A stretch of 64,000 bases of DNA from Nitrosospira briensis (GTDB lineage Bacteria > Pseudomonadota > Gammaproteobacteria > Burkholderiales > Nitrosomonadaceae): NCBI RefSeq assembly GCF_900115125.1, contig NZ_FOVJ01000001.1, forward strand, positions 1,087,852 to 1,151,851, written 5' to 3'. Below the pieces are notes generated by a model that saw only the letters and a program-made list of their open reading frames with translations, did not search any database and was not told where the DNA came from. Positions 17,055 to 19,930 of the stretch are shown here, piece by piece (position 1 is the first letter of the stretch; every line of letters starts with the position of its first letter). A program made the position numbers and the translations under genes.

Positions 17055-17428
17055 TACGAGATTTTCCCTTGCTTAACCGGCCTTGCTTGACCCAAGCTGG
17101 CTCAATCGCCACTCCCTTGCCATATAAACACTGTAAACACTGCGTCCGTGCGCAAGCGAACGCTCTATTGGCGGCACTCGCCTTTATCCAGCCTGGATTT
17201 CTGTCTCGACCTGCTCGTTCTAGGTGTTATTCACCCGCGCTGAAGGAACTGCAACCCCGTAGTATCGGTCAAATCAATTCTTGGTATGCTGGGATCCGGC
17301 TGGGCGAAATGATCGAAGGTCTCGTGGCAATCGCTAACGTCAGGATCCGGTCGCACGCATCTTTTTAATTGCTTTGCATGCAGTGTATACCGAGATTAAT
17401 CCATGTTTTTATTGAAGGAGAGCGGCAA
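17055..17428. other. Divergent spacer between hss and the His-rich gene
   Basis: No supported gene. It must hold promoters for both flanks. I see no clear zinc- or iron-regulator box by eye. Confidence 0.4.
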
Positions 17429-17782
17429 ATGGCTAATTGTATCCTGCCACAGCACGAAAATCATACTCATCCGCATAGCGCTGAATGCGGGCATATACGT
17501 ATTGTGCACGGCAACCATGTTGACTACTTGCACGATGGCCACTTGCATCACCCGCACGGCGACCATATGGACGAACACTCACTGGATATAACGGAGAGCA
17601 ATCCGGACGAATGCACGCCTGGGCACCAATGCGACAGCCATCAACAAGAGCATACTCACGGCCCGGAATGCGGGCACGAGATGGTGCCGCATGGCGAACA
17701 TATCGACTATCTGGTTGACGGCCATCTTCATCACCCGCATGGTGATCATTGTGACGATCACGGACCGGTAACGCTGGCATAA
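17429..17782 (+). CDS. Histidine-rich metal-binding protein with internal duplication (117 aa)
   Basis: A small cytoplasmic-looking protein, very rich in His, Asp and Cys. Two ~31-residue repeats share CGH, then HG-x-H-x-DYL-x-DGHLHHPHGDH, joined by a linker with CTPGHQCDSHQQEHTHG. This composition indicates binding or storage of Zn, Ni or Cu. No signal peptide is present. The ATG at 17429 is chosen because AAGGAGAG precedes it by eight bases; an in-frame start 20 codons earlier lacks this. Proteins of this type often accompany metal transporters, but none is adjacent here. Confidence 0.82.
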   Translation: MANCILPQHENHTHPHSAECGHIRIVHGNHVDYLHDGHLHHPHGDHMDEHSLDITESNPDECTPGHQCDSHQQEHTHGPECGHEMVPHGEHIDYLVDGHLHHPHGDHCDDHGPVTLA

Positions 17783-17941: not shown

Positions 17942-19930
17942 TCAAACTGTATTGATCAATGCAGGGTGAGTTAACTCAATATCGCTAATGTGACGGCCTT
18001 GTTGCGGCGGTGAATAGGCACTATAGCTGGAAATAACTGAAGGCTCCAGGTGTCCCGTGATCTGTTCAAGGTCCGACAGCCGCAGCCCCTGGCGCACGAG
18101 ATAAGTGATATAGCTATGCCGGATTGCGTCGGCGGTTATTTCCTCGGGATCGGGCAAGCCCGAGTCAACCGCTGCGCACACCAGTGCCGCTGACAGATCT
18201 ATACACGTCCCCGCATCGCCGGGACTCCAGACGGGGTGGCCGTCTGATTCAATGAGCAGGGATTTGAGCGGCTTGCTCAGAGGAATGGTTCTAGACGAGG
18301 TCCCGTCGAGGTTGATCGTTGCCGCTTCGAGATCAATCTGATTCGGCCGTAACATCGCAGCCTCATTAATGCTCACGCCACTGAGCAATAAACCGATCAG
18401 TTGCTTTCCTTTCAGGTTTGAAGCATTGATTAAAGTCCTTAACTGATGACTGCTGAGCTCTCGATACGGAGGCGCAGAATTCGTCAGCACGTGAGCCGCT
18501 TTATTATCCAGTGAACGGGCTGTGGTCCCCAGCGCGGGATGAGGATCATCAATCAACTTGGTACCTGCATTGGCAGCTGAATAATTCTGCATGCCGAAAA
18601 TGGCAATAGCCGGATGTTGATCCTTCTTCTGGGTTAAATACTCGAAAACCCAGACGGCAAAGAGCCCTAAAAACAGGGACCCAACTATCGCTATCAAAGC
18701 TTCTTGCGTATAGGCCGGCCTCACCGGATCCGTTGATTCATAAGCCCTGCTAATGACGGTTACCTGAGGGTATTTGTCCTTGCGCCCCGTCTTGACCTGT
18801 ACCAGCCGCTCCTGCGCTTCACGATAAAGGGTTTCAAGCCCTTCCAGATCGGTTTTCAGCGCATCATGTTGCGCAAATTTCGATGAGAACGCCGATGCCT
18901 CCTTTTTATGCTCGCTCAGTTGCGCCCGAATATCCCTGACGGTCTGCTGTGCGGCTGTGTAAGCCATTTCTGCATCCGTCAATACCACGTTTTGACCATA
19001 TCGGCGCTTGTTGTTGACCGCTGTCTCAAGTTCCTTGATTTGCTCCGGAATTGATTTCAAATCGGGCTGCAGATTCAAATACTCGCGGGTAAATTTCTTG
19101 TCAAGTCCCGCCAGTTTCTCGCGCAAATCCTGCAACCTTGTTTCCAGATCAACCAGACTACCCTTCTCGTCATCAGGGACAACTGCTTTTCCCCGGGATA
19201 TCGCGGCTTTCACAGCATCCAGGTTTGATTTCGCCTTGACCTCAGCTTCGGAGGCTTTATTCAGCGCTTCATTCAGGCCTCTCATGCGGGCTGCGGCTTC
19301 ATTTTCTTCCCGCTCTGTAGAAGAGATATCGTTATTTCTCCTGAAGTCCTCCAGTGCCAGCCTGGCGGAGTTGACCTTGTCGGCCAGGCCATCCAGTTCG
19401 TCCTCGACAATGCGTTCGGTATTGCTCGTCAACTTTTTGACTTCTTCAGTCCGCGCATCAAGGTAAACGTCTATCCACGTGTTGATGAGCAGCGGTAAAA
19501 ACTTGGGATCGGTACCCTCCGCCATAATCTCGACGAGATTGGTTTCAGCGACAGGGGAGACATTCAGCAAATTCTGGATATCGGATGGTTTCAGTTGAAC
19601 CAGAAATTTGCCGGCAGCGGATGCTTTCAGCCTGGACACGGTTTCGGCAGCAAGCTCATGGCCTAAAAAAATCTGACGCTGAATGGCCACGTGCTGGATA
19701 TCGGCGTCGCTGCTTTCGCGGTCTATGGCCGTCATCGCCGAGGTCAGCAATGTTGCCCTGCTTTGATAGACGGCGGGCTGACTGTAGATGTAAGCCAGGC
19801 TGATAGCAGCGCTGGTTAAAAATACCAAAACGAAAATGCTGAATCTGCGCGAGCGGTACCATGGCTGCTCATCCACATCCGCAGAAAGCGGGACACTTCC
19901 GGACAAGCGTGAACTGATCCTGTTTTTCAT
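17942..19930 (-). CDS. Wzz/GumC-type polysaccharide co-polymerase with a tyrosine-recombinase-like C-terminal domain
   Basis: A 662-residue membrane protein. The N-terminal TM (FSIFVLVFLTSAAISLAYIY, ~30-50) is followed by a Wzz domain and a long periplasmic coiled coil (~160-380). The PVRPAYTQ motif precedes the second TM (~409-430), typical of chain-length regulators. In Wzc/BY-kinases a kinase would follow. Here, residues ~495-645 instead resemble the catalytic domain of tyrosine recombinases, with LLLSGVSINEAAML, AIRHSYITYLVRQG, LEQITGHL and a Tyr ten residues after the GH glycine. Arg I and the HxxR His appear lost, so strand exchange is doubtful. No polysaccharide genes are adjacent. Confidence 0.85.
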   Translation of the reverse strand: MKNRISSRLSGSVPLSADVDEQPWYRSRRFSIFVLVFLTSAAISLAYIYSQPAVYQSRATLLTSAMTAIDRESSDADIQHVAIQRQIFLGHELAAETVSRLKASAAGKFLVQLKPSDIQNLLNVSPVAETNLVEIMAEGTDPKFLPLLINTWIDVYLDARTEEVKKLTSNTERIVEDELDGLADKVNSARLALEDFRRNNDISSTEREENEAAARMRGLNEALNKASEAEVKAKSNLDAVKAAISRGKAVVPDDEKGSLVDLETRLQDLREKLAGLDKKFTREYLNLQPDLKSIPEQIKELETAVNNKRRYGQNVVLTDAEMAYTAAQQTVRDIRAQLSEHKKEASAFSSKFAQHDALKTDLEGLETLYREAQERLVQVKTGRKDKYPQVTVISRAYESTDPVRPAYTQEALIAIVGSLFLGLFAVWVFEYLTQKKDQHPAIAIFGMQNYSAANAGTKLIDDPHPALGTTARSLDNKAAHVLTNSAPPYRELSSHQLRTLINASNLKGKQLIGLLLSGVSINEAAMLRPNQIDLEAATINLDGTSSRTIPLSKPLKSLLIESDGHPVWSPGDAGTCIDLSAALVCAAVDSGLPDPEEITADAIRHSYITYLVRQGLRLSDLEQITGHLEPSVISSYSAYSPPQQGRHISDIELTHPALINTV

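What the first reader, a model, noticed from the sequence alone, without database searches (positions are those of the whole stretch)
17942..19930. Polysaccharide co-polymerase fused to a tyrosine-recombinase-like domain
Seen: a standard Wzz/GumC protein (two TM, coiled coil, PVRPAYTQ) whose cytoplasmic tail, where BY-kinases carry a kinase, instead resembles the catalytic domain of XerC/D recombinases, including AIRHSYITYLVRQG, ITGHL and a Tyr ten residues after the GH glycine. Arg I (Ser in LLLSGVSINEA) and the HxxR His (Asp) appear lost. A membrane-anchored, probably inactive recombinase fold could bind DNA or partner proteins and link polymer assembly to the chromosome. I know of no described protein of this design. 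The function is inference.
Basis: partly seen in the sequence, partly recalled or inferred. Interest (0 to 1): 0.75.

Follow-up and report, generated by a model that had tools for sequence, protein, structure and literature searches.

The report
Polysaccharide assembly protein with dead recombinase
In ammonia-oxidising bacteria, methane-oxidising bacteria and some relatives, a membrane protein of the kind that steers surface-sugar polymer assembly carries on its inner end a DNA-recombinase fold that has lost its cutting residues and probably works as a protein-docking module, a design for which no description was found.

Summary
The 662-aa frame at 17942-19930 (-) is a divergent polysaccharide co-polymerase (PCP) followed by a disordered linker and a domain with the tyrosine-recombinase catalytic fold. 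Sequence profiles, AlphaFold (tail pLDDT 93.9, pTM 0.90) and Foldseek (Wzc for the front, XerA for the tail) agree. It is not a chimera: the full-length fusion is in 22 of 23 genomes of the genus, in Nitrosomonas, in gamma methanotrophs, and, diverged, in four further families. PCP and tail trees agree and the tail is under purifying selection. In 42 of 42 aligned members the catalytic Arg I, the hairpin Lys and the HxxR His are gone; the nucleophile position is Tyr in 38, Phe in 4. Best reading: a domesticated pseudo-recombinase serving as a protein-interaction module on the cytoplasmic face of a PCP, where others carry a tyrosine kinase or bind a pseudokinase. That function is inference. One MAG contig has tail-less tandem relatives, so the tail can be absent. 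Eight literature searches found no description.

The parts
17942..19930 (-). Coding sequence of the fusion protein, 662 aa, ATG start
   Evidence: full-length orthologues
19781..19849 (-). TM helix 1 (residues 28-50)
   Evidence: hydropathy and model helix 28-50
18713..19780 (-). Periplasmic PCP domain with long coiled coil (residues 51-406)
   Evidence: EpsF and XrtA chain-length profiles; Foldseek to Wzc and WzzE; helices 144-200, 211-245, 289-386
18632..18712 (-). TM helix 2 (residues 407-433), preceded by the Pro-containing PVRPAY motif
   Evidence: hydropathy, model helix 407-433; P405 and Y407 invariant in 42
18467..18631 (-). Variable linker (residues 434-488), predicted disordered
   Evidence: pLDDT under 50 at 435-486; 24% mean identity against 44% in the tail
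17945..18466 (-). Pseudo-tyrosine-recombinase catalytic domain (residues 489-662)
18371..18373 (-). Ser520 at the Arg I position
   Evidence: T24 S14 D3 N1 in 42 members; R in 30 of 30 controls
18128..18130 (-). Asp601 at the HxxR His position
   Evidence: no His in 42 members; H in 30 of 30 controls
18119..18121 (-). Arg604 at the Arg II position
   Evidence: R in 37 of 42; R in 30 of 30 controls
18050..18052 (-). His627 at the H/W position
   Evidence: Y28 H9 in 42; H in 30 of 30 controls
18023..18025 (-). Tyr636 at the nucleophile position
   Evidence: Y38 F4 in 42; Y in 30 of 30 controls

Best explanation
The protein is a divergent PCP-2-type polysaccharide co-polymerase whose cytoplasmic module is a domesticated, catalytically dead tyrosine-recombinase catalytic domain. 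Shown by computation: the fusion, its age and spread, the loss of three catalytic residues, the acidic charge, the conserved family-specific residues, and the joint descent of both halves. Inferred: the protein sits in the inner membrane with the tail in the cytoplasm, the coiled coils form an oligomer in the periplasm that paces polymer growth or export, and the tail binds neighbouring tails or a partner to set assembly and disassembly of that oligomer, a job done elsewhere by a fused or separate tyrosine kinase or, in Myxococcus, by the pseudokinase EcpK.
For: Fold of both halves: Wzc 9r64 E 1.3e-9, WzzE 8p3p 3.3e-5, XerA 5hxy 6.9e-6 in one search; tail alone XerA 1.2e-6. Three catalytic positions lost in 42 of 42. 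16 tail columns conserved in at least 38 of 42 members but shared by at most 3 of 30 active-type domains (counted over the three commonest control residues), e.g. D589, Q614, R617, E622, P630, Y639, P641: a new constraint replaces the old one. Tail dN/dS 0.04-0.26 in 15 pairs (several dS above 1 are saturated). PCP and tail trees: 30 of 32 strong PCP splits in the tail tree, 22 of 22 the other way, no strong conflict, r 0.84 against at most 0.37 in 500 permutations. Acidic tail. No Walker A in the protein. In three genomes of one family the gene lies among nucleotide-sugar dehydrogenase, epimerase, glycosyltransferase and ManC-type genes, and six methanotroph loci have a family-2 glycosyltransferase just downstream. 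Precedent for scaffold control of a PCP without phosphorylation: EcpK, PMC12004946 (abstract and outline seen). Precedent for a recombinase fold kept for another job: MrpR, PMC10516654 (abstract and passages).
Against: No oligomer or partner was predicted or measured. The immediate neighbours differ between Nitrosospira, Nitrosomonas and methanotrophs in the 18 loci printed, and I recognised no polysaccharide gene beside it in the window (only some neighbours were family-searched), so no cognate polymer is known. L078 holds two tandem tail-less 496-aa relatives, so the tail is not needed everywhere. The whole PCP half stays under curated cut-offs, and full-chain TM-scores to Wzc are only about 0.31. 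Retention of Arg II (37 of 42) and Tyr (38 of 42) could hint at a remaining use of that pocket.
Confidence: 0.5

Rival explanations
1. DNA tether: the tail binds DNA without cutting it and links polymer assembly to the chromosome, as MrpR uses a dead recombinase fold as a DNA-binding repressor.
For: MrpR, YopR and SroF are solved dead-recombinase-fold regulators and appear, weakly, in the tail's fold search (E 8.3e-3, 1.2e-2, 1.8e-2); MrpR binds DNA (PMC10516654). Arg II and the Tyr are mostly kept.
Against: Acidic tail, positive in 1 of 42, against mean +3.1 and 2 of 30 at or below zero in Xer-type domains; no second DNA-binding domain in front, the linker is disordered. Charge is a crude proxy.
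Confidence: 0.1
2. Tyrosine-phosphorylated docking tail: the near-invariant tyrosines of the tail (607, 610, 636, 639) are substrates of a separate tyrosine kinase, so the tail works as the kinase's receiver rather than as a plain scaffold.
For: Y607 40 of 42, Y610 38, Y636 38, Y639 39, three of them family-specific against the controls; PCP-2 oligomer state is set by tyrosine kinases in other systems (PMC12004946 abstract; PMC12881504 passages).
Against: In the model these tyrosines lie in or beside helices of a compact domain, unlike the flexible tyrosine tail of Wzc; no kinase was looked for in the genome; F replaces Y636 in 4 of 42.
Confidence: 0.2
3. Structural relic: a once useful recombinase domain carried along, kept folded only because the PCP needs some soluble end.
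For: Tail-less relatives exist (L078); tail dN/dS is above that of the PCP in 14 of 15 pairs; nucleophile and Arg II are lost in the divergent f6 g9 members L087, L088, L090.
Against: dN/dS still 0.04-0.26; tail core 54% mean identity, as high as the PCP parts; 16 family-specific conserved columns; retained in divergent families.
Confidence: 0.12
4. Active membrane-bound recombinase.
For: Fold, Arg II, GH and Tyr are present in the window protein.
Against: Arg I, hairpin Lys and HxxR His absent in 42 of 42; Tyr replaced by Phe in 4 of 42; no N-terminal DNA-binding domain.
Confidence: 0.02
5. Assembly chimera of two genes.
For: None found.
Against: Full-length intact frames in 25 of 61 genomes and in 50 of the 52 loci of the genome scan (the other two are a truncated contig, L080, and the tail-less L078).
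Confidence: 0.005

Closest known systems
Wzc / PCP-2a co-polymerase with fused tyrosine kinase
   Same: Two TM helices, periplasmic domain with long helical arms, cytoplasmic C-terminal domain; best fold match of the whole model (9r64, E 1.3e-9).
   Different: No Walker A; the cytoplasmic domain is a pseudo-recombinase, not a kinase.
EpsF / XrtA-type chain-length determinants (TIGR03017, TIGR03007)
   Same: Best sequence-profile matches of the front half, 4.7e-15 and 2.6e-14.
   Different: Far below the curated cut-offs (55.3 against 422.75 bits; 52.4 against 278.85); has a folded C-terminal domain.
XerA/XerC/XerD tyrosine recombinases
   Same: Catalytic-domain fold (5hxy, TM 0.67-0.69); G518, E523, R547, L618, G626 shared with controls.
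   Different: No Arg I, no hairpin Lys, no HxxR His; acidic; no N-terminal DNA-binding domain; anchored to a membrane protein.
MrpR/YopR of prophage SPbeta
   Same: Recombinase fold that has lost the catalytic residues and gained another function (PMC10516654).
   Different: Soluble DNA-binding repressor; the present tail is acidic and part of a membrane protein; fold match weak (8a0a E 8.3e-3).
EcpK pseudokinase with PCP EpsV (Myxococcus xanthus)
   Same: A PCP served by a dead-enzyme fold, proposed there to act by protein contact (PMC12004946 abstract).
   Different: There a separate tyrosine-kinase fold; here a fused recombinase fold.

Membership tests
Polysaccharide co-polymerase (PCP-2 / Wzz superfamily) | Two TM helices bracketing a periplasmic domain with long helical arms | tested here: met
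Polysaccharide co-polymerase (PCP-2 / Wzz superfamily) | Pfam Wzz (PF02706) at its curated cut-off | tested here: not met
   11.9 bits against 25.5; relatives L078b 16.8 and L094 20.7 bits, also under it
Polysaccharide co-polymerase (PCP-2 / Wzz superfamily) | Controls chain length or export of a polymer | not testable with these tools
   no experiment; polysaccharide genes nearby only in some loci
EpsF or XrtA chain-length equivalogs | NCBIfam equivalog cut-off | tested here: not met
PCP-2a with tyrosine kinase | Walker A motif and kinase domain in the cytoplasmic part | tested here: not met
   no [AG]x4GK[ST] match; tail has the recombinase fold
Tyrosine recombinase | Catalytic-domain fold | tested here: met
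Tyrosine recombinase | Arg I, hairpin Lys, HxxR His | tested here: not met
   absent in 42 of 42, present in 30 of 30 controls
Tyrosine recombinase | Nucleophilic Tyr | tested here: met
   Y in 38 of 42, F in 4; lost in divergent L087, L088, L090
Tyrosine recombinase | N-terminal core-binding domain | tested here: not met
   434-488 is a disordered linker, directly after TM2
Dead-recombinase DNA-binding regulators (MrpR type) | Binds DNA | tested here: inconclusive
   only net charge was tested, and it speaks against it

The most novel reading that the evidence does not exclude
A new class of phosphorylation-independent co-polymerase: the recombinase domain's habit of passing its C-terminal end to the next subunit in a ring (recalled from Xer and Cre structures, not from a call) was taken over to build a cytoplasmic ring of tails under the PCP oligomer, replacing the kinase ring of Wzc as the assembly switch.
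Probability: 0.25. Interest if true: 0.8.

Novelty: new variant of a known kind. Interest (0 to 1): 0.58.

Why it matters
It is a conserved case of a DNA-recombination enzyme fold turned into a cytoplasmic part of a cell-envelope polymer machine, in ammonia and methane oxidisers among others. It offers a testable way in which a co-polymerase could be governed without tyrosine kinase activity, a question raised by the EcpK work, and shows a route by which mobile-element or Xer-type domains are domesticated outside DNA biology. Annotation pipelines may miscall such proteins as recombinases, since Phage_integrase is their strongest Pfam match.

Tried and rejected
Association with ammonia/methane monooxygenase: the first 52 loci suggested it (by title 13 Nitrosospira/Nitrosovibrio, 16 Nitrosomonas, 1 'AOB' Burkholderiales MAG, 15 methanotrophs, 7 'Gammaproteobacteria' MAGs counting L078), but none of the 8 genomes with divergent fusions has PF02461, so it is not a rule. 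The window's genome has no PF02461 match either, but 16 of 23 genomes of the genus do and the four with one or two contigs each have three copies, so an assembly gap is likelier.

Conserved gene neighbourhood: looked for in the neighbours of all loci (18 loci printed) and not found across the three groups; only local sets (PEP carboxylase upstream in one Nitrosomonas group; SNF2 helicase, GT2, fatty-acid hydroxylase, DUF3047 in methanotrophs).

Chimera, active recombinase and DNA tether: see rivals. Tail-less ancestor: L078 is tail-less, but it falls inside the tailed rows (53-row set, SH-aLRT 99) with divergent tailed rows outside, so loss is the simpler reading; long branches meet there and the root is not inferred, so this is not settled. 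A promoter-like site at 20034-20005 (-) is at chance level (5 found, 3.4 expected).

Control corrected: searches used two control domains (L121, L127) on the wrong strand; one search repeats the count on the right strand (mean charge 3.4 became 3.1; still 2 of 30 at or below zero).

Full report
OBSERVATION. The frame at 17942-19930 on the minus strand encodes 662 residues from an ATG. Two hydrophobic helices at about 28-50 and 407-433 bracket a region whose best sequence profiles are chain-length determinants (EpsF 4.7e-15, XrtA type 2.6e-14), both far below their curated cut-offs, with Pfam Wzz at E 0.29. So the front half is a divergent rather than a standard co-polymerase (PCP). After TM2 comes a linker of low confidence (435-486 under pLDDT 50), then the tail. 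The tail matches Phage_integrase at 7.6e-7 (29.5 bits, above the cut-off of 27.1; in the whole protein 24.3 bits, below it), XerA_Arch at 2.5e-8, PDB 4a8e at 7.8e-6, and 12 Xer-type domains of related genomes by profile comparison at 96.2%.

STRUCTURE. AlphaFold2 of the full protein with 42 family rows gave mean pLDDT 78.7 and pTM 0.36; relative placement of the parts is therefore not known. In one Foldseek search the model hits Wzc (9r64, E 1.3e-9, TM about 0.31, rmsd 18.6), XerA (5hxy, 6.9e-6) and WzzE (8p3p, 3.3e-5). The tail alone is confident (pLDDT 93.9, pTM 0.90) and its top matches are recombinases, led by XerA (E 1.2e-6, TM by query 0.67-0.69), then integron, phage and transposon integrases, with the dead-fold regulators MrpR, YopR and SroF lower down (E 8.3e-3 to 1.8e-2).

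SPREAD. In 61 genomes (own plus 60 relatives) 25 carry the full-length fusion: 22 of 23 of the genus (the miss, G002, is 80% complete) and 3 of 5 of genus g3; none of the 9 genomes of g2 and g4 and none of the 24 others of the order. A scan of named genomes gave 52 loci: by title 13 Nitrosospira/Nitrosovibrio, 16 Nitrosomonas, one Burkholderiales MAG, 15 methanotrophs or methanotrophic symbionts, 7 'Gammaproteobacteria' MAGs. Fifty of the 52 have an intact long frame; L080 is cut by its contig end and L078 is tail-less. With the family profile, 300 genomes of the order gave 8 full-length matches, four of them diverged (G090, G173, G134, G101); 398 genomes of the phylum gave 3, one new (G645); 197 of G645's order gave 4, three new. 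These last two used E <= 1e-20. Between these (over 270 bits) and ordinary PCPs (at most 56 bits) there is a wide gap.

DESCENT. On 59 rows, 30 of 32 strongly supported PCP splits recur in the tail tree and 22 of 22 strong tail splits in the PCP tree, without a strong conflict; tree distances correlate at 0.84, at most 0.37 in 500 permutations (quick trees). One fusion, inherited as a unit, explains this. Two Methylobacter rows (L040, L045) join the Nitrosospira rows with full SH-aLRT support, which points to transfer between a gamma methanotroph and a beta ammonia oxidiser. L069, titled gammaproteobacterium, sits with Nitrosomonas and shares its gene order and is probably Nitrosomonas.

CATALYTIC RESIDUES. 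In the 42-row alignment: Arg I position T24 S14 D3 N1; HxxR His position no His; Arg II R37; H/W position Y28 H9; nucleophile Y38 F4. The hairpin Lys column is a gap in 42 of 42. In 30 control domains these are R30, H30, R30, H30, Y30 and K30. The controls are the top PF00589 matches of 26 genomes, mostly Xer-type by their motifs, so they represent one branch of active enzymes. Diverged f6 g9 members (L087, L088, L090) have lost Arg II and the Tyr as well, and their Arg I position is not Arg. Thus the dead state is shared by all members examined.

CONSTRAINT AND CHARGE. Tail dN/dS is 0.04-0.26 in 15 pairs, the PCP's 0.05-0.13; in 14 of 15 the tail is the faster evolving (several dS values exceed 1). 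Tail core identity is 54%, PCP parts 53-59%, linker 24%. Sixteen columns are fixed in the family but not in the controls. Net charge of residues 489-644 is -6 in the window protein and -5.6 on average, positive in 1 of 42; controls average +3.1, 2 of 30 at or below zero. This argues for protein rather than DNA contacts.

CONTEXT. Immediate neighbours differ between Nitrosospira, Nitrosomonas and methanotroph groups (18 loci printed). Six methanotroph loci have a family-2 glycosyltransferase directly downstream. In the window the neighbours I tested are a saccharopine-dehydrogenase-type enzyme and a His-rich protein without Pfam match. So the link to a polymer rests mainly on the PCP fold.

MECHANISM. 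PCP-2 proteins alternate between oligomeric states set by a cytoplasmic tyrosine kinase, fused or separate, and the pseudokinase EcpK was proposed to do this by contact alone (PMC12004946, abstract and outline). [quoted passage not shown] A dead recombinase fold with another job has a precedent in MrpR (PMC10516654, abstract and passages). I propose that here a pseudo-recombinase tail plays the EcpK-like part in cis. Shown: anatomy, fold, dead active site, constraint. Inferred: topology, oligomer, contacts, polymer.

NOVELTY. Eight searches of the paper library showed no description of a PCP-recombinase fusion; subscription papers and preprints are mostly not held, and two listings were partial (20 of 22; 15 of 184). 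I rate it a new variant of a known kind: a PCP with an unreported cytoplasmic module.

Noticed in passing
L078:362-1852 and L078:1875-3365: Two tandem tail-less relatives (496 aa each) of this PCP on one MAG contig; the ORF at L078:33-269 (-) looks like a transposase piece (my reading of the letters, no family search).
   Followed up: partly
window 17369-17782 (+): Convergent neighbour, 137 aa, very His-rich with an internally repeated motif, no Pfam match, homologues in 7 Nitrosospira-type loci; looks metal-binding.
   Followed up: partly
G000 (window's genome): No match to the AMO family PF02461 although single- and few-contig genomes of the genus have three copies each; probably a collapsed repeat lost from the draft.
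   Followed up: partly
L040, L045: Methylobacter copies group with Nitrosospira rather than with other methanotrophs (SH-aLRT 100): likely horizontal transfer of the whole fusion gene.
   Followed up: partly
L069: MAG titled Gammaproteobacteria shares gene order and tree place with Nitrosomonas; the title is probably a broad or mistaken label.
   Followed up: partly
L061/L073 and L074/L079: Two copies of the fusion per MAG in Methylicorpusculum (E9 bin 41) and Methylomicrobium (CROMO_BS_115_2), on different contigs, in separate branches of the tree.
   Followed up: no
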